Positions 3,889 through 38,167 of a stretch of DNA of 40,747 nt are shown here, piece by piece (the stretch's first letter is position 1; every line of letters starts with the position of its first letter). The DNA is taken from positions 1 to 40,747 of the forward strand of contig JAITOE010000250.1 in assembly GCA_031290135.1 (NCBI GenBank), written 5' to 3'. The notes under the pieces were generated by a model, which had not been told where the DNA came from, did no database searches, and worked only from the letters and a program-made list of their open reading frames with translations. This stretch comes from Eubacteriales Family XIII. Incertae Sedis bacterium (GTDB lineage Bacteria; Bacillota; Clostridia; Peptostreptococcales; Anaerovoracaceae). The translations under genes and the position numbers were made by a program.

Positions 3889-4005
3889 TTCCGTCATTGC
3901 GAGCGAAGCTTCCGTCATTGCGAGCGAAGCTTCCGTCATTGCGAGCGAAGCGAAGCAATCCACAGGCACTGGATTGCTTCGTCGCTTTGCTCCTCGCAAC
4001 GACAA
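3889..4005 (+). repeat. Palindromic repeat element with three tandem 21-bp units
   Basis: Three head-to-tail 21-bp units (TTCCGTCATTGCGAGCGAAGC type) start at 3889, 3910 and 3931. The third runs into a long imperfect palindrome of form GCGAAGCAATCCA...TGGATTGCTTCG ending CTCCTCGCAACGAC. A near-identical copy of the palindrome (one mismatch seen) is at 33319-33390 and an expanded relative is at 29711-29940. Dispersed intergenic palindromes of this GTCATTGCGAG type are widespread in bacterial genomes. Non-coding. Confidence 0.85.
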
Positions 4006-30522: not shown

Positions 30523-30613
30523 GCTGCGATTTCGTGTAAAAAATGCGACCTGATTATTGCTTTTTCGTGAATAATTCAGATTATTTTACTTGCTTTTTCG
30601 TGCGATATATACT
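30523..30613 (+). promoter_or_regulatory. Promoter with three 33-bp-spaced TTCGTG repeats, ATPase at 30.6 kb
   Basis: Repeat cores TTCGTG at 30531, 30564 and 30597, exactly 33 bp apart, within CTGCGATTTCGTG, TTGCTTTTTCGTG and TTGCTTTTTCGTG. The last copy lies between a weak -35 TTACTT (30586-30591) and -10 TATACT (30608-30613, 16-bp spacer), so a protein bound there would directly affect polymerase. Confidence 0.78.
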
Positions 30614-30643
30614 ATGATAAGAAGCATGAAAGAAGGGCGCGAC

Positions 30644-31987
30644 ATGAATTTGAAACGGAAAATTTACGCGGAGATGCTGAAATGGAAAGCCGGAAGCGAC
30701 GGGACGACCGCCCTGCTGATAAACGGCGCCCGCCGCACCGGAAAAAGCTATATTTGCGAAAGCTTTGCTCGGAACGAGTACAGGAGCCATATAACAATTG
30801 ATTTCGGCAACGCGCCGAAAGAGATACCGGATCTTTTTTTGAACGAAAGCGCCGACCTCGACCTGTTTTTCCTGAAGCTCTCCGCGTTTTATTCAACCGC
30901 GCTGCACAGGCGCCAGTCGGTCATTATTTTCGATGAAGTGCAGCAATGCCCGCGGGCGCGCCAGCTAATCAAATATCTGGTCGCCGACGGCCGGTATGAT
31001 TACATAGAGACCGGTTCGCTCATCGGGCTGAAAAAGAACGTAAAGGACATTATCATTCCGTCGGAAGAGGAACACATGGAGATGTTCCCGCTTGATTTTG
31101 AAGAATTCCTCTGGGCGACGGGGGACGAAACGGCAGTCCCGCTGTTAAAACAATGTTTCGCTTCAAAAACACCGCTCGGCCAGCCCCTGCACAGAAAAAT
31201 CATGAACGATTTCCGGCAATATGCTTTAGTCGGCGGGATGCCGCAGGCCGTTCTGGAGTACGCAAAATCCAAAGATTTCGGGGCGGTCGATGCCGTCAAA
31301 CGGCGCATCCTCCGGCTTTACCGTGATGATGTTTCAAAATTTGCCGAAGGCTACGAAGACAAGGTGTTTGCTATTTTTGACGGGATTCCGGGGCAGCTTT
31401 CCAAAAAAGAAAAAAAATACAAGCTGTCGTCGCTGGCAAAGGAGGCCCGTTTCCGCAGCCATGAAGACTCCTTTGTCTGGCTGAACGAAGCCATGATTGT
31501 CAACGCCTGCTTCAACGCGACGGATCCGACAATCGGGCTGGCGCTGAACATGGACCGCCTGACGCAAAAATGCTATATGGCCGACACCGGGCTTTTGGTC
31601 ACGCTTGCTTTTTGGGATTTGCCTTTTGCGGAAAACGATCTGTACAAGGCTGTTTTGTTTGACAGGCTGGACGTTAACGAAGGCATGATCATGGAAAACA
31701 TAGTGGCGCAGATGCTGAGGTTTAACCGCCACAGACTGTATTTCTACTCCCGCAGCGACGCCCTGAAACGTGAAAACCACATGGAGATCGACTTTTTGGT
31801 CGCCCGCGGGAAAAAGATTTCGCCGGTTGAAGTCAAGTCAGGAAACTACAGATCCCATTCATCCCTTGACAAGTTCAAAAAGAAATTCTCGTCCCGCCTG
31901 GGCGATTCCTTTATCCTATATGCCAAAGATGTTGCCGTGAAAGATGACATTGTCCACCTGCCGCTGTACATGGCCATGTTCCTTTGA
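30644..31987 (+). CDS. AAA ATPase with C-terminal DUF4143 domain
   Basis: 447 aa from the ATG at 30644 (AAGAAGG 7 bp upstream; an ATG at 30626 is possible). Walker A GARRTGKS (28-35), Walker B SVIIFDEVQQC (92-102), sensor-like YIETGSLIGL, MEMFPLDFEEFLWA, and YALVGGMPQAVLEYA. The DUF4143 part ends with HMEIDFLVARG and ISPVEVKSGN (nuclease-fold strand pair) and the family C-terminus LPLYMAMFL, identical to that of the 17.9-kb ATPase. All expected motifs are intact, so it is probably functional; the activity is unknown. Upstream: triple-repeat promoter. Downstream: a bidirectional terminator shared with a convergent, defective relative. Confidence 0.87.
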   Translation: MNLKRKIYAEMLKWKAGSDGTTALLINGARRTGKSYICESFARNEYRSHITIDFGNAPKEIPDLFLNESADLDLFFLKLSAFYSTALHRRQSVIIFDEVQQCPRARQLIKYLVADGRYDYIETGSLIGLKKNVKDIIIPSEEEHMEMFPLDFEEFLWATGDETAVPLLKQCFASKTPLGQPLHRKIMNDFRQYALVGGMPQAVLEYAKSKDFGAVDAVKRRILRLYRDDVSKFAEGYEDKVFAIFDGIPGQLSKKEKKYKLSSLAKEARFRSHEDSFVWLNEAMIVNACFNATDPTIGLALNMDRLTQKCYMADTGLLVTLAFWDLPFAENDLYKAVLFDRLDVNEGMIMENIVAQMLRFNRHRLYFYSRSDALKRENHMEIDFLVARGKKISPVEVKSGNYRSHSSLDKFKKKFSSRLGDSFILYAKDVAVKDDIVHLPLYMAMFL

Positions 31988-32050: not shown

Positions 32051-33232
32051 TTATGCCGTCAGGCAGAACATTGCATAGAGCGGAATGCTTTTTATGCCGT
32101 TTTCAAAGCCGAAGTTTTTGGCCGACACCCGTATGGAATAAACGGGCTTGTAAATGTCCCGGTAAGCCCGCAGGCTTTTGGAGCGCACGTTCTCGGCCGA
32201 CTTCGCTTCCAGTGGGATGATGTCGCCGGATTTTTCCTGAAAGACAAAATCCACCTTGGCTTTGCCCTGCGAAGCCCAGTAGTACGGCGTGACGTCGGCC
32301 GCCACAAGCGCCTGGCAGATATAGTTTTCCGCAAGCGCGCCCTTGAACCCGTCAAAGGTGTGGGCAGCATGAAGAACCGCGCCGGGGGGGATGCCGAACT
32401 TGGAACACAGCAGCCCCGTGTCCGCCATGTAGACCTTGAACGTTTCGTTTTCGGCGTATGCGGACAGCGGCAGTTTGCCCTCCGTCACATGGACGCACGT
32501 GTGGATCATGCCCGCCGCCTTCAGCCAGTCCAGCGCGACGGCGTAATCGCCCGCCCGCGCCCCGGACCGAATGACCTTGTACTGGAATTTATGGTTTTCC
32601 TTGGCAAGCTGCGCCGGAACCGAAGCCCATGCCGCCATGATGCGGTTTGTTTCCTGCGGCGTGGCGTATTTCGCCATGTCCGCGATGTAGGAATCGTTCA
32701 GCGTCCGCTGCAGGGCCGCGACAAAGTCAAAATCCCGCTTGCCGGCGTATTCCTGCACGGCGCGGGGCATGCCGCCGACGACAAGATAGGTCTTGTACCA
32801 GTCCATCGCCGTATCATGAAGCGACAAGGGCGTGAAACCGTCATAGGCTTCGCGGATGAGGCCGCATAGCGCGTTTTGGCCGACAGCCCACAAAAATTCC
32901 TCAAAGTCCATTGGGAAGAGCCGGAGCATGTCCACCTTGCCGACGGGGAAAGAGAAATTTTCGCGCTTCATGGCGACGCCGAGCAGGATGGTCTGGCCGC
33001 TCCGGGCGGCAAGCTCCCGGACAATGCGCACGGGGTTCAGGTCGCGCGCAAAGACGGCGGGGGTCTCCATGGAGTCCTCCATGCTGAAATACGCGACGTT
33101 TTTATAATGCTGTTTCCCGAAAGAAAGCAAGGTGTACGTCTTGCCCACCTGCCGCGCCCCCTGCAGGAGCAAAGGCAGCTTGTCGGGTTTGTTTTTCCAC
33201 GCCAGCAGCGATTTTACAATTTTACGTTCCAT
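32051..33232 (-). CDS. DUF4143 ATPase lacking Walker B (internal deletion)
   Basis: 393 aa. Walker A GARQVGKTY (25-33) is intact, and so are MLRLFPMDFEEFLWAVG, YLVVGGMPRAVQEYA and the DUF4143 end (KVDFVFQ, IIPLEAKSAEN). Between TI (81-82) and LLGVAMKRENFSF (83 on), the whole stretch that in relatives carries Walker B (LIFLDEIQ), the following CP...LKYF helix and the sensor strand is absent, about 35-45 residues, without a frameshift. ATP hydrolysis should be lost. Start at 33232 with AGGTGA 9 bp upstream. No triple repeat precedes it. Either a decaying gene or a regulatory paralogue; the former is more likely among so many scars. Confidence 0.82.
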   Translation of the reverse strand: MERKIVKSLLAWKNKPDKLPLLLQGARQVGKTYTLLSFGKQHYKNVAYFSMEDSMETPAVFARDLNPVRIVRELAARSGQTILLGVAMKRENFSFPVGKVDMLRLFPMDFEEFLWAVGQNALCGLIREAYDGFTPLSLHDTAMDWYKTYLVVGGMPRAVQEYAGKRDFDFVAALQRTLNDSYIADMAKYATPQETNRIMAAWASVPAQLAKENHKFQYKVIRSGARAGDYAVALDWLKAAGMIHTCVHVTEGKLPLSAYAENETFKVYMADTGLLCSKFGIPPGAVLHAAHTFDGFKGALAENYICQALVAADVTPYYWASQGKAKVDFVFQEKSGDIIPLEAKSAENVRSKSLRAYRDIYKPVYSIRVSAKNFGFENGIKSIPLYAMFCLTA

Positions 33233-33318: not shown

Positions 33319-33390
33319 GTCATTGCGAGCGAAGCGAAGCAATCCACAGGCACTGGATTGCTTCGTCGCTTCGCTCCTCGCAACGACAAA
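33319..33390. repeat. GTCATTGCGAG-type palindromic element, second copy
   Basis: CGTCATTGCGAGCGAAGC then GAAGCAATCCACAGG-CACTGGATTGCTTCG and CTCCTCGCAACGAC; it matches 3938-4005 with one mismatch seen in the core. Confidence 0.85.
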
Positions 33391-33654: not shown

Positions 33655-34032
33655 TCATCTGGCGGCATAGATATGGAATTTGACCTTGACCGGGTTGCCG
33701 AGAGTCGCTTTAATCGCATCGTGCAGTTCCGCACAAATGTCCGGGCGGGTCTTGTGCAGGCGGTTTTTGGGGATGGCATCCGCAGTGACGAATAGTTTTC
33801 CGCAGTCTATCAGGGTAATTCTGTCAAACGGGTTCCGCGAAATGTCTGGTTGTTCTATCAGATATTTTGATGTCTGCCCGATAACTCCGAATTTGTAAGA
33901 CTGGCATTTTACCAGTCTTTTTGTGGCGGAAACTTTTTCGGCACAAATGTACATATGCGCAATTTTTGACAAAGCCGAGCTTGCTTCCGGGTACGGTACC
34001 GTGAGGTAGACCACGTTTCTTTCGTCAATCAA
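33655..34032 (-). CDS. 125-aa protein, putative toxin partner of a Panacea-like antitoxin
   Basis: I do not recognise the family. The sequence is basic and soluble (VVYLTVPYPEASSALSKIAH, KSYKF-like KCQSYKFGVIG, DRITLIDCGKLFVTADAIP, VKVKFHIYAAR), with no signal peptide or membrane helix. The TTG start at 34032 has a GAGGGG RBS 8 bp upstream and overlaps the stop of the upstream gene by 8 bp, so the two are coupled. The small size, tight overlap and partner suggest a toxin of a toxin-antitoxin pair; this rests on context only. The alternative is a structural or regulatory accessory protein. Confidence 0.5.
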   Translation of the reverse strand: MIDERNVVYLTVPYPEASSALSKIAHMYICAEKVSATKRLVKCQSYKFGVIGQTSKYLIEQPDISRNPFDRITLIDCGKLFVTADAIPKNRLHKTRPDICAELHDAIKATLGNPVKVKFHIYAAR

Positions 34033-34678
34033 AAACCAAAACCCCTCTTTCGTCGATATATGAATATACAGGGTTTTCGAAGCCGCCGAAACTGTCCAGG
34101 CGGCAAAGCTCCTCCTTGTGGGATTCCGTGAGCCTCGCCGCGTCTTCCGCGTCGAACAGGTATCGCGTCCCGCCTGACCTTACGACGCGTTTTCTTTCAA
34201 TGAAACTTGGCGGAAACGCCATGGCGAATTCCCGTACCAGATCAGCATCGCTTTCCGAAAAATCCGAAGCCGAAAGCTGCACGTGCGGCTCCCCTGACTC
34301 GATCCGCTCCTTTCCGGCTTTCCAGATGTCCATCCGGTGCGTAATGTCCGAAAGCTCGTCTTCCGTGAATGCGTTGCAGACGAATTCGGCAAGCGCAACA
34401 TATCGCTCAGGGACAGGGAGTCCGTTTTCCATGTACGCCGCAAGCGCGCTTTTTTTCAGCGCATCTTTTTCCCTTGTGTAGTCTTTCCATATGGCTCCGA
34501 ACACAGGACCTTTTCTGTACCCCTTCAGTCCGCCGAACTCGTAAGGCTCCCCCTCTGCCGCGCAAATGGACTCGCAAAAGAAGAGGAACTTTTGATACCG
34601 CAGGGAGCTGCGGAAAGTTTCGGGCTTGTTTTCCAGAAGCCATCCGGTGATGGCCAGTTTTCTTTTGCTTGCATGCAT
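34025..34678 (-). CDS. Panacea/SocA (DUF4065)-like putative antitoxin
   Basis: 217 aa. The N-terminal half fits the Panacea domain layout: ITGWLLENKP, LRYQKFLFFCESICAAEGEPY (the LQKLLYF-like helix), YRKGPVFGAIWKDYT (the Y-GPV-YEAF-like motif) and DELSDITHRMDIWK. This domain is used by diverse antitoxins (PanA, SocA). The C-terminal half is unassigned. Start at 34678, with GGAAGG about 10 bp upstream; longer starts enter the leader. The downstream small gene overlaps it by 8 bp, giving antitoxin-first order. Its strong promoter has TCAAAAA repeats upstream, which would suit autoregulation. The domain call is by pattern and moderately sure. Confidence 0.6.
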   Translation of the reverse strand: MHASKRKLAITGWLLENKPETFRSSLRYQKFLFFCESICAAEGEPYEFGGLKGYRKGPVFGAIWKDYTREKDALKKSALAAYMENGLPVPERYVALAEFVCNAFTEDELSDITHRMDIWKAGKERIESGEPHVQLSASDFSESDADLVREFAMAFPPSFIERKRVVRSGGTRYLFDAEDAARLTESHKEELCRLDSFGGFENPVYSYIDERGVLVFD

Positions 34679-34747
34679 CACTGACGGCACCTTCCGTTTC
34701 GTGCAAAGGGGTTCTTTGTTCTGTTGCCATGGGCGCTTGTTGCCTTT

Positions 34748-34825
34748 ATTATATCCACCCGCATGCCAAAATGCAAGCGCTTTCAAAAACTCATCAAAAA
34801 CTCATGGCAAAGCATCAAAAAACAT
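34748..34825 (-). promoter_or_regulatory. Promoter of the Panacea pair with upstream TCAAAAA repeats
   Basis: On the minus strand TTGCAT (34776-34771), 17-bp spacer, TATAAT (34753-34748). Plus-strand TCAAAAA copies begin at 34783, 34794 and 34815 (steps of 11 and 21 bp), between this promoter and pnuC. They could be operators for the divergent genes. The pnuC promoter itself is unclear, with GATAAAAT near 34826 a possible -10. Confidence 0.68.
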
Positions 34826-34869: not shown

Positions 34870-35550
34870 ATGAAAAAGATGCTGGCATACTGGAAAGCCT
34901 GGGAACTGGCATGGCTTTTGGTTTTCGGCCTGACGGCGCTTTGGATCACGCTGGTCACGGGCGACAACCTGTTCGGCTTCGTCGTTTTCCTGTCCGGGGT
35001 GCTTTGCGTGGTGCTCGTCGCGAAAGGCAGCATCCTGAACTATCCTGCCGGCGTGGTCAACACGCTCGGCTACGCGTGGATCGCGCTTCACAACGGCCTG
35101 TACGGGGAAGCGGGGCTGAACCTGATCTTTTATTTCCCCATGAACTTCGTCGGATTCTTCCTGTGGCGGCGCCATACGGCGGGCGGGATTGTCAAAATGC
35201 GCGCGCTGCGGCCCGGAACGGCCCTGATTTTTGCCATTGGCTGTGCCGTGCTGGTCGCCGCCCTCGGATTCGGCCTGTCCCTGATACCCTCCCAGAACAC
35301 CCCGTACATAGACGCGGCCACGAACGTCCTGTCGGTCGCCGCGACCCTGCTGATGGTGCGGCGCTACCGCGAACAGTGGATCTGTTACATCGCGCTGAAC
35401 GTCCTGACCGTGACCATGTGGGCCGTCCGCATGGCGAACGGAAGCCCGGACGGGCTGCTGATGATCGTCATGTGGTCGGCGTATCTGGTCAATTCCGTTT
35501 ACGGCTGGCTGAACTGGAGCAAGGGCGCGAGGGAGGCGGGGCGGCAATGA
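34870..35550 (+). CDS. pnuC: PnuC-type nicotinamide riboside transporter
   Basis: 226-aa membrane protein with about 7-8 hydrophobic segments in the PnuC fold. Signatures: SGVLCVVLVAKGSILNYPAGVVN, the substrate-region pattern YAWIALHNGLYGE, NLIFYFPMNFVGFFLWRRH, and a C-terminal VRMANGSPDGLLMIVMW with YLVNSVYGWLNW. Facilitates uptake of nicotinamide riboside, trapped by phosphorylation inside the cell. The stop overlaps the nadR start (ATGA), placing transporter and kinase in one operon. Confidence 0.93.
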   Translation: MKKMLAYWKAWELAWLLVFGLTALWITLVTGDNLFGFVVFLSGVLCVVLVAKGSILNYPAGVVNTLGYAWIALHNGLYGEAGLNLIFYFPMNFVGFFLWRRHTAGGIVKMRALRPGTALIFAIGCAVLVAALGFGLSLIPSQNTPYIDAATNVLSVAATLLMVRRYREQWICYIALNVLTVTMWAVRMANGSPDGLLMIVMWSAYLVNSVYGWLNWSKGAREAGRQ

Positions 35551-36569
35551 GCGGAAAAAAAACCGGGCTGACGCTCGGCAAATTCGCGCCGTTCCACAAA
35601 GGGCACGAATGGATAGTCGAGACGATGCTTGCCGAAATGGACGAAGCGGTCGTCATCATTTACGACAGCGGCCTCACGCCCGTGCCGCTGCCCGTCCGGG
35701 CGGGCTGGATCCGGACGCTTTATCCGCAGGTCCGCGTCCTGGAAGCCTGGGACGGCCCTTCGCGCTGGTCAAGCGAACGGGAACATGAGCGCCTGGAGGA
35801 GGAATATGTCAAGAGCCTGCTCGGCGGCGTGAAGGTGGACGCGTTTTATTCCAGCGAACACTACGGCGCCCACATGTCCTCCGCCCTGGGCTGCGCGGAC
35901 AGGCGGGTGGACGAGGCGCGGGAAAGGGTTCCCGTCTCCGGGACGATGCTGCGCGGCGACCCGTACCGCTGGCGGGCGTATGTCAGCGGCGCCGTATACC
36001 GCGACCTCATCGTGAAGGCCGTGTTCGTCGGAGCCATGTCAACCGGGAAATCCACCATCACGCGCGCGCTCGCCGAACGCTTCCACACGACTTGCGCCGA
36101 CGAGTACGGGCGCGAATACTGGGAAAAGCACCAGGTTGGCAGGCGCATCGGCCTTTCGGATTTTGACAGCATCGCAGTCGGCCACATCGAACGCGAGGAT
36201 GCCGCGATACGCGGGGCGAACCGCTATTTTTTCGTCGATACGAACGCGATCACGACGTATATGTTCGCCCTGGACTACCACGGGCGGGCGCCCGGCCTGC
36301 TGACGCGGCTCGCCCTGGAAAACGCCACCCGCTACGACTTGTTCTTCCTGTGCGGGGACGAGATGCCCTATGACGACACCTGGGACAGGAGCGGCGACGC
36401 GAAACGGCACGTGTTCCAGAAGCAGATCATAGCGGACCTGAAGACGCGGAAAATCCCGTACATCCCCCTCGCCGGGAACCTCGCGGAGCGGATGGCGAAG
36501 GTGGAGGCGGTGCTTGCGAAATTCTCCCCCTTCGGGAATTTCTATGGGCTGGCGGGCGGGTCGCTGTGA
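35547..36569 (+). CDS. nadR: NadR-type NMN adenylyltransferase / ribosylnicotinamide kinase
   Basis: 340 aa, bifunctional and cytosolic. N-terminal nucleotidyltransferase: GKFAPFHKGH (11-20) and the second motif VSGTMLRGDP (130-139). C-terminal kinase: P-loop GAMSTGKST (162-170), DEYGREYWEKH, and FVDTNAITTYMFALDYHG. It lacks the N-terminal helix-turn-helix repressor domain of enterobacterial NadR, so it is purely enzymatic. With PnuC it converts imported nicotinamide riboside to NMN and then NAD. ATGA overlap with pnuC. No terminator is obvious; the next 110 bp are unremarkable. Confidence 0.93.
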   Translation: MSGKKTGLTLGKFAPFHKGHEWIVETMLAEMDEAVVIIYDSGLTPVPLPVRAGWIRTLYPQVRVLEAWDGPSRWSSEREHERLEEEYVKSLLGGVKVDAFYSSEHYGAHMSSALGCADRRVDEARERVPVSGTMLRGDPYRWRAYVSGAVYRDLIVKAVFVGAMSTGKSTITRALAERFHTTCADEYGREYWEKHQVGRRIGLSDFDSIAVGHIEREDAAIRGANRYFFVDTNAITTYMFALDYHGRAPGLLTRLALENATRYDLFFLCGDEMPYDDTWDRSGDAKRHVFQKQIIADLKTRKIPYIPLAGNLAERMAKVEAVLAKFSPFGNFYGLAGGSL

Positions 36570-36709: not shown

Positions 36710-36717
36710 ATAATCGT

Positions 36718-36756
36718 GATTAAGTTAAACAAGATTAAGTTAAACAAGATTAAGTA
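36718..36756 (+). repeat. Three direct repeats, 15-bp period, in the ATPase leader
   Basis: GATTAAGTTAAACAA at 36718 and 36733, and GATTAAG at 36748 followed by divergent sequence. They sit just downstream of the -10 box in the untranslated leader. Translated in frame they would read IKLNK repeats, but the RBS and family alignment put the start at 36779. Confidence 0.8.
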
Positions 36757-36778
36757 TTTTGCGTTTGAGGCGAACGGG

Positions 36779-38167
36779 ATGTTTATCGGAAGAAACGAAG
36801 AGTTAAAAAGTTTGACCGGATATTACAATAGCGGCAAATATGAATGCGCCGTTATTTATGGGCGCAGACGCGTTGGTAAAACCGAACTGATTACAGAGTT
36901 TGTCAAAGACAAAAAACATATATACTTCACGGCAGTCGAAGGAACATATCAAAAAAACCTCGACATGCTCAGCAAGGCTGTGTTCAACGGGCTGGACGGC
37001 GGAATCCACGTCAGCAGCCCGACGTTTGCTGATTTTGCCGATTGCCTTGATCATATCTATAATCACTCGCAGGAAAAACTGGTTGTAATAATAGATGAGT
37101 ATCCGTACTTTGCGCAAAGCGAGCAGTCGGTTTCCTCGGTTTTACAACAGTACATCGACCATAAATTTCAGCGGAGGGACATAATGTTTATCCTTTGCGG
37201 CTCGTCTATGTCGTTTATGGAAAAGCAGGTTATGGGCAATAAAAGTCCGCTCTACGGGCGGCGAACCTGTCAATATAAGCTCCAGCCATTTGATTTCAAG
37301 ACCTCAATGGAGTTTCACGGCGGATTCGACAAGCGAGAGCAAGCAGTCGTGTACGCGATAACCGGCGGGATACCGAAGTATTTATTGCAGATTGACGGCA
37401 GTAAATCGCCAAAAGAAAATATTGTAAAGAACTTTTTTTCGCCCAACGGCCTGCTTTTTGAGGAACCGAATAATTTGTTGAAACAAGAGCTTCGTGAGCC
37501 TGCGGTGTACAACGCGATTATCACGGCTATCGCGACGGGAAGCTCCAAGCTCAATGAAATAGCCACCAAAGCGCATATGACTACATCCGCTTGCAGTAAT
37601 TATTTGAAGTCGCTGATTTCGCTGAACATCGTCCGGAAGGAACTGCCAATTCTCGCAAAGGCGAACGCACGGAACACGATTTATCGCCTGAACGATGGCA
37701 TGTTTCGGTTTTGGTACAAGTTTGTGTACGACAACGTTTCGGAAATATCTATGCATCAGGGCGAAGCGATTTACACGGAAATCGAGCAGCAAATCTCTGA
37801 CTTTATGGGCGAGGCGTTTGAGGATATTTGCAAGCAGTGGATGTGGCGGGAAAATTTTGCGGGTCGGTTGCCTTTCCGTTTCAAGGACTGCGGACGCTGG
37901 TGGGGAACGAATCCACGCCGCCGGGCCGAGCAGGAGATTGATTTGCTTGCGTACAACAGGGACAAAACCGGCGCGATATTCTGTGAATGCAAGTGGACAA
38001 ATGAGAAAATATCCGACGGTATCATAGTTGAATTGATAGATAAAAGTGAAATGTTCGGATATGGGAAAAAGCATTATTATTTATTTTCCAAGAGCGGATT
38101 CACCCCGGCGGCGCTGAAAAGGGCGAACGATGATGTTCGGCTGATTAGCTTTGACGATATGTATTGA
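36779..38167 (+). CDS. Archaeal-type ATPase with DUF234-like nuclease-fold domain
   Basis: 462 aa from the ATG at 36779 (MFIGRNEELKSL, the canonical family start; GAGG 9 bp upstream). Walker A GRRRVGKT (28-35), Walker B VVIIDEYPY (102-110), sensor-like FILCGSSMSFME, GGIPKYLLQI, a winged-helix region (KLNEIATKAHMTTSACSNYLKSL), and a C-terminal DUF234-type domain with EIDLLAYN and AIFCECKW, a PD-(D/E)XK-like strand pair. It belongs to the AAA ATPase_2/DUF234 branch, distinct from the DUF4143 genes but of similar domain logic (P-loop ATPase plus nuclease fold). Function not established. AT-rich against its neighbours nadR and cysK, suggesting acquisition. Confidence 0.85.
   Translation: MFIGRNEELKSLTGYYNSGKYECAVIYGRRRVGKTELITEFVKDKKHIYFTAVEGTYQKNLDMLSKAVFNGLDGGIHVSSPTFADFADCLDHIYNHSQEKLVVIIDEYPYFAQSEQSVSSVLQQYIDHKFQRRDIMFILCGSSMSFMEKQVMGNKSPLYGRRTCQYKLQPFDFKTSMEFHGGFDKREQAVVYAITGGIPKYLLQIDGSKSPKENIVKNFFSPNGLLFEEPNNLLKQELREPAVYNAIITAIATGSSKLNEIATKAHMTTSACSNYLKSLISLNIVRKELPILAKANARNTIYRLNDGMFRFWYKFVYDNVSEISMHQGEAIYTEIEQQISDFMGEAFEDICKQWMWRENFAGRLPFRFKDCGRWWGTNPRRRAEQEIDLLAYNRDKTGAIFCECKWTNEKISDGIIVELIDKSEMFGYGKKHYYLFSKSGFTPAALKRANDDVRLISFDDMY

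What the first reader, a model, noticed from the sequence alone, without database searches (positions are those of the whole stretch)
33655..34825. Candidate Panacea-type toxin-antitoxin pair with an unrecognised 125-aa partner
A Panacea/SocA-like 217-aa gene overlaps by 8 bp a small basic gene of no family I recognise, under a strong promoter with TCAAAAA repeats. Panacea antitoxins pair with very diverse toxins, so the partner may be a new toxin type.
Basis: inference. Interest (0 to 1): 0.65.

Follow-up and report, generated by a model that had tools for sequence, protein, structure and literature searches.

The report
Panacea antitoxin with MazF-fold toxin
Two overlapping genes form a widespread but unannotated toxin-antitoxin pair, carried mostly by prophages and other mobile DNA of Firmicutes: a divergent Panacea antitoxin plus a small protein predicted to have the fold of the RNA-cutting toxin MazF but lacking its usual catalytic arginine.

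Summary
In detail: a 217-aa gene (34678-34025, minus) overlaps a 125-aa gene (34032-33655, minus) by 8 bp. No Pfam, NCBIfam or PADLOC model hits either one. Neither is an orphan. Relatives of the 217-aa protein lie in about 45 loci, and every intact locus carries a relative of the 125-aa protein immediately downstream, nearly always with the same 8-bp overlap (TTGATTRR), a TTG start and a Shine-Dalgarno-like sequence inside the antitoxin gene.

The 217-aa protein is a divergent Panacea antitoxin: 25 of 36 relatives hit PF13274; profile comparison E 1.3e-7. The 125-aa protein (phrog_29631, function unknown) is predicted (pLDDT 90) to have the MazF/PemK/CcdB fold (Z 11.1 to S. aureus MazF). The family lacks a conserved arginine at the MazF catalytic position; His26 and Tyr28 are invariant. 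A relative of the antitoxin (L004) is a Pfam-level Panacea paired with a Pfam-level PemK toxin. Five loci keep the antitoxin but have a disrupted toxin; one shows the opposite.

I read it as a type II toxin-antitoxin pair whose toxin is probably a MazF-fold RNase with an altered active site. Toxicity is untested. MazF-like Panacea partners are already reported, so it is a new variant of a known kind.

The parts
34025..34678 (-). 217-aa divergent Panacea (SocA/PanA-like) antitoxin. Panacea core about residues 22-127; conserved C-terminal extension about residues 128-217.
   Evidence: No direct Pfam hit; 25 of 36 relatives hit PF13274; hhalign to Panacea 94%, E 1.3e-7; phrog_1281 E 1.3e-9; AF2 pLDDT 96.4; full-length match to a Pfam-level Panacea protein in L004.
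33655..34032 (-). 125-aa basic partner protein (phrog_29631 family), TTG start; predicted MazF/PemK-fold toxin. Lacks the C-terminal tail (about 10-17 aa) of most relatives, as does L034.
   Evidence: phrog_29631 E 1e-23; AF2 pLDDT 90, pTM 0.84; Foldseek and VIA-align to MazF.
34025..34032 (-). 8-bp overlap TTGATTGA: end of antitoxin gene and start of toxin gene
   Evidence: Read directly; same overlap in nearly all relatives.
34042..34047 (-). Shine-Dalgarno-like GAGGGG inside the antitoxin 3' end, 9 nt before the toxin TTG
   Evidence: Such a motif within 18 nt upstream in 31 of 34 loci, against 0-5 of 33 at control offsets.
34748..34776 (-). Candidate promoter: TTGCAT, 17 bp, TATAAT
   Evidence: Sequence only; not listed by the consensus scan.
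34783..34804 (.).

Best explanation
The two genes are a type II toxin-antitoxin pair (PanAT type). The 217-aa Panacea protein is made first; translation of the toxin is coupled to it through the 8-bp overlap, an embedded Shine-Dalgarno-like sequence and a weak TTG start, so antitoxin is made in excess. The 125-aa protein folds like MazF/PemK. It most likely inhibits growth by cutting RNA and so stopping translation, using a site built around invariant His26, Tyr28 and the conserved K-C-Q-[TS]-x-K segment instead of the canonical Arg/Thr pair. The antitoxin binds it directly, perhaps with the conserved C-terminal extension. The pair spreads as cargo of prophages, satellite phages, integrative elements and plasmids, where it probably stabilises the element or blocks competing phages. 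Shown here: the conserved pairing, overlap, Panacea membership, predicted fold and mobile context. Inferred: toxicity, RNase activity, active-site residues, neutralisation mode and biological role.
For: Pairing: 24 of 25 genomes holding the antitoxin have exactly one partner match, beside it. Toxin-first searches, independent of the antitoxin: 2 of 398 phylum genomes, 2 of 344 relatives of L020 and 2 of 348 relatives of L015 have the partner; apart from already known loci they gave L058 and L134, both beside an antitoxin or its remnant. Overlap, TTG start and embedded SD conserved. Antitoxin and toxin distances are correlated, Mantel r 0.65, 0 of 5000 permutations. Nonsynonymous divergence is well below (saturated) synonymous divergence in both genes. 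Antitoxin is Panacea. Partner has MazF fold: Foldseek probability 1.00, VIA-align Z 11.1 over 102 residues, rmsd 2.8. Bridge locus L004: antitoxin homologous over residues 13-215 (BLASTP 5e-8), Pfam Panacea 3.2e-12, partner Pfam PemK 1.7e-6. Five loci keep an intact antitoxin beside a disrupted toxin (L016, L018, L019, L037, L134). Mobile context: directly downstream of the endolysin in six prophages, in a streptococcal satellite phage next to paratox, and near a phage integrase.
Against: No growth, binding or RNase data. Sequence-level link of the partner to PemK/MazF is not significant (hhalign probability 3-6%, E 0.013 local or 0.002 global; no Pfam hit). Foldseek E-values are only about 1e-3. 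No conserved arginine at the MazF catalytic position. CcdB, a gyrase poison, shares the fold (Z about 8.9). One locus (L058) has an intact partner gene with only a 35-aa remnant of the antitoxin, which a strongly expressed toxin should not tolerate. The window protein lacks the C-terminal tail of most relatives, so this copy could be weakened.
Confidence: 0.72

Rival explanations
1. It is a Panacea toxin-antitoxin pair, but the MazF-fold toxin is not an RNase: it acts like CcdB on DNA gyrase, or on another target.
For: CcdB structures share the fold and appear in the match lists (Z about 8.7-8.9). The catalytic Arg of MazF is not conserved.
Against: MazF structures rank clearly first (Z 11.1). 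A homologous antitoxin is paired with a Pfam-level PemK toxin. The family has no conserved C-terminal tryptophan, which from general knowledge is needed for gyrase poisoning by CcdB.
Confidence: 0.15
2. The pair is not a growth-arresting toxin-antitoxin module but a two-subunit accessory complex of mobile elements (for example a phage-specific regulator or superinfection factor) whose small subunit is harmless by itself.
For: L058 keeps the small gene intact with only an antitoxin remnant. No toxicity data exist. Ten candidate systems of the NetFlax set showed no toxicity in E. coli (PMC10440598).
Against: Disruptions hit the small gene while the Panacea gene stays intact in five loci, against one reverse case. 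Panacea proteins are established antitoxins and the MazF fold is an established toxin fold.
Confidence: 0.1
3. The module is a toxin-antitoxin pair in its relatives, but the window copy itself is a decayed, non-functional remnant.
For: The window toxin is 125 aa and lacks the C-terminal tail with the LN motif found in most relatives; Asp78 is Gly and Pro48 is Phe here.
Against: Both frames are open, invariant residues His26, Tyr28 and Pro68 are kept, the predicted fold is complete to residue 115, and L034 has the same short form.
Confidence: 0.15

Closest known systems
PanAT toxin-antitoxin systems with MazF-like PanT (PanT of Pseudomonas moraviensis and of Bifidobacterium ruminantium; Kurata 2022, PMC8832971)
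   Same: Panacea antitoxin paired with a small protein predicted to have the EndoA/PemK/MazF fold that domain databases miss by sequence.
   Different: I could not compare the sequences, so it is unknown whether these toxins belong to the same family as the window protein. Theirs are tested; this one is not.
SocAB (SocA, which gives its name to PF13274 SocA_Panacea)
   Same: Panacea antitoxin domain.
   Different: From general knowledge SocB targets the replication clamp and is degraded with SocA as adaptor; nothing here suggests a SocB-like partner.
MazEF / PemIK (PF02452)
   Same: Predicted toxin fold; small toxin gene next to and downstream of the antitoxin gene.
   Different: Antitoxin is Panacea, not a MazE-type DNA-binding protein; the canonical catalytic Arg is not conserved; no significant sequence match.
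Panacea-PemK pair of L004 (G024:C14, same bacterial family as the window)
   Same: Antitoxin homologous along its whole length including the C-terminal extension; toxin follows with an overlap.
   Different: Its toxin is a Pfam-level PemK with an RPF segment at the usual place; the window toxin is not alignable with it by BLASTP.

Membership tests
Panacea antitoxins (PF13274, PanA) | Match to the SocA_Panacea profile | tested here: met
   Window protein alone: no hit. Family: 25 of 36 members hit, best 6.4e-5. Profile-profile 94%, E 1.3e-7. Bridge protein in L004 over the Pfam cut-off, BLASTP 5e-8 to the window.
Panacea antitoxins (PF13274, PanA) | Core of helices alpha1-alpha7 with strands beta1 and beta2 (PMC10440598) | tested here: inconclusive
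   AF2 model (pLDDT 96) has helices, two short strands at 51-54 and 57-60, then helices, which fits by order. No solved Panacea structure turned up in the fold search, so there was no superposition.
Panacea antitoxins (PF13274, PanA) | Two-gene operon with a small partner | tested here: met
Panacea antitoxins (PF13274, PanA) | Neutralises and binds the cognate toxin | not testable with these tools
MazF/PemK toxins (PF02452) | PemK-like fold | tested here: met
   Predicted model only: Z 11.1 to SaMazF 4mzp, 102 residues, rmsd 2.8; Foldseek probability 1.00. CcdB shares the fold.
MazF/PemK toxins (PF02452) | Significant sequence-profile match to PF02452 | tested here: not met
   0 of 33 members hit Pfam PemK; hhalign probability 3-6%.
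MazF/PemK toxins (PF02452) | Catalytic Arg25 (Lys in some) and Thr48 (Ser in some), PMC7354611 | tested here: not met
   No conserved Arg or Lys at residues 16-30 of the family; invariant residues there are His26 and Tyr28. A Thr/Ser is at 45 in 31 of 33. Residue-level registration is uncertain by about one position.
MazF/PemK toxins (PF02452) | Sequence-specific endoribonuclease activity and growth inhibition | not testable with these tools
   Needs expression and RNA cleavage assays.
CcdB gyrase poisons | Same fold, C-terminal Trp-Gly-Ile needed against gyrase (general knowledge) | tested here: not met
   No conserved Trp or WGI in the alignment; CcdB structures rank below MazF.

The most novel reading that the evidence does not exclude
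phrog_29631 is a new toxin family: a MazF-fold protein that has replaced the Arg/Thr catalysis of MazF by a His26-centred site (HMYIC and KCQTxK motifs), with different chemistry or a different target, neutralised by a Panacea antitoxin through a C-terminal extension beyond the Pfam Panacea domain.
Probability: 0.3. Interest if true: 0.6.

Novelty: new variant of a known kind. Interest (0 to 1): 0.42.

Why it matters
It gives a likely function to two protein families with none assigned (phrog_29631, phrog_1281) that sit as cargo in prophages and related elements of streptococci, paenibacilli, Lachnospiraceae and mycoplasmas. It adds a Panacea partner whose MazF fold lacks the conserved catalytic arginine, so it tests directly how far that fold can change its active site and how Panacea re-targets to new toxins. 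The naturally broken toxins beside intact antitoxins offer ready inactive controls.

Tried and rejected
Direct Pfam, NCBIfam, PADLOC and PDB sequence searches of both window proteins gave nothing useful; PDB hits such as phycobilisome linker or thymidylate kinase are chance. BLASTP of the window toxin with the L004 PemK: no alignment. Toxin profile against PDB sequences: nothing. Weak NCBIfam ICE_Mbov_0400 hits in three relatives (E 0.038) were not resolved; no paper found. Regulatory RNA near the pair or the pnuC-like gene: none. 'Homologues of the small protein occur alone' was tested in about 1,100 genomes and rejected, apart from L058 with its antitoxin remnant. The antitoxin model found no PDB match and only weak viral matches, best A0A6G5XX43, E 0.018. 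The repeats and promoter were considered as an operator and set aside for lack of any supporting evidence; the antitoxin has no recognised DNA-binding domain.

Full report
What is there. On the minus strand a 217-aa ORF (34678-34025) is followed by a 125-aa ORF (34032-33655) that starts with TTG inside the last eight bases of the first gene, TTGATTGA. The pair lies between a divergent pnuC-like transporter gene (34870-35550, PF04973) and a DUF4143 ATPase gene (32051-33232). It is slightly lower in G+C (0.53 and 0.48) than the window (0.57). Neither protein hits Pfam, NCBIfam or PADLOC.

It is a conserved pair. tblastn found both genes side by side, 29-34% identical, in Streptococcus satellite phage Javan216, where the second gene is not annotated. 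A profile of the first protein found 26 loci in bacterial genomes and 19 in viral contigs: Lachnospiraceae and other Clostridia, paenibacilli, Gemella, Streptococcus, Mycoplasma, a Spirochaetaceae MAG and prophages. In essentially every locus with both genes intact the partner follows directly. Searching whole genomes with the partner profile, 24 of 25 antitoxin-bearing genomes have exactly one match and it is beside the antitoxin. Partner-first searches of 398, 344 and 348 genomes found it in only two genomes each. These were loci already known, L058 (intact partner, antitoxin reduced to its last 35 codons, overlap kept) and L134 (intact antitoxin, partner with an internal deletion). The module is therefore rare and patchy, and the partner was not found in unrelated contexts.

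Anatomy of the junction. Nearly all loci share the 8-bp overlap TTGATTRR and TTG is the likely start. A Shine-Dalgarno-like motif lies within 18 nt upstream in 31 of 34 loci, against 0-5 of 33 at control offsets inside the same genes. I infer translational coupling with limited toxin output. Because the motif sits in a conserved Gly-containing part of the antitoxin, some of this conservation may be protein-level.

The antitoxin. The window protein alone misses PF13274, but 25 of 36 relatives hit it (best 6.4e-5) and profile comparison with 18 Panacea proteins gives 94% and E 1.3e-7, with the LQKFLFFYE, GPVF and LTHxxxxW signatures aligned. A relative from the same bacterial family, L004, aligns over residues 13-215 (BLASTP 5e-8) and exceeds the Pfam Panacea cut-off (3.2e-12). 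The model (pLDDT 96) has a helix-strand order that fits the description of Panacea (PMC10440598). Conserved Tyr54 and His114 sit where, by description, Y56 and H120 of B. choladocola PanA were needed for neutralisation (PMC10440598); this correspondence is inferred. Residues 128-217 are a conserved extension beyond the Pfam domain.

The partner. All 33 relatives belong to phrog_29631, function unknown. The AF2 model (pLDDT 90) matches MazF toxins first (Foldseek probability 1.00, E 1.2e-3; VIA-align Z 11.1 with SaMazF over 102 residues), then CcdB (Z about 8.9). Sequence similarity to PemK is not significant, though the profile alignment is collinear over 103 columns (E 0.013; swapped-family controls 0.19-0.38 over at most 37 columns). 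The L004 bridge pairs a homologous antitoxin with a Pfam PemK toxin (1.7e-6). In MazF, Arg25 and Thr48 (Lys or Ser in some) are catalytic (PMC7354611). In this family no Arg or Lys is conserved at residues 16-30. His26, Tyr28 and Pro68 are invariant, and K-C-Q-[TS]-x-K (42-47) and IDCDK (75-79) are strongly conserved. So it is placed with MazF by fold, not by sequence or by the known active site.

Evidence that the partner is the harmful one. In L016, L018, L019, L037 and L134 the antitoxin is intact while the partner is disrupted: a rearrangement after residue 21, a deletion of about residues 19-44 with a stop, a stop at codon 4 and a break at residue 26, a stop after residue 31, and an in-frame deletion of about residues 27-56. 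All five touch the segment that would hold the active site. The reverse case is L058 alone. Several of these are draft or MAG assemblies, so single cases could be artefacts. Both genes show amino-acid-level constraint, with low dN and near-saturated dS, and their distances correlate (Mantel r 0.65, 0 of 5000 permutations).

Context. In six prophages the pair lies directly downstream of the endolysin gene (amidase or GH25), the usual place of accessory cargo. In Javan216 it is between the virulence-associated protein E gene and paratox, in L134 close to a phage integrase gene, and in L058 near genes that look conjugative (my reading). In the window no phage gene adjoins the pair in the part I examined, so it is probably a chromosomal copy of a mobile module.

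Literature. PMC8832971 shows Panacea antitoxins with many unrelated toxins, including two (P. moraviensis, B. ruminantium) predicted by HHpred to be MazF-like and shown to block translation. PMC10440598 lists MazF/PemK among the commonest toxin folds of its network. This pair is therefore a new variant of a known kind. Whether it is already one of the 41 clusters without a domain hit in that dataset could not be checked.

Noticed in passing
window 33327-33383: Palindromic repeat (TGGATTGCTTCGTCGCTTCGCTCCTCGCAA and its mirror arm) just downstream of the pair; 128 matches with up to 3 mismatches in this 2.76-Mb draft genome, 0 for the reversed control pattern. A REP-like dispersed element, also at 3970 and 29837 of the window.
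   Followed up: partly
L004:1327-2453: In a genome of the same family, a Panacea antitoxin homologous to the window one is paired with a Pfam-level PemK toxin: a possible case of toxin divergence or replacement with the antitoxin kept.
   Followed up: partly
L134:1492-1854: Natural in-frame deletion of about residues 27-56 of the toxin beside an intact antitoxin; a ready inactive variant.
   Followed up: yes
L058:627-1229: 200-aa gene beginning YHGTLAENAKKI near the orphan toxin, possibly ADP-ribosyltransferase-like by eye; no Pfam hit.
   Followed up: no
window 30590-31987, 32051-33232, 36716-38167: Three AAA ATPase genes with DUF4143 or DUF234 domains within 8 kb, around the pair.
   Followed up: no
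window 34870-36569: pnuC-like transporter gene followed by a NadR-like gene (AAA_28 kinase domain; adenylyltransferase-like N-terminus by eye), probably NAD precursor salvage; no known riboswitch upstream.
   Followed up: no
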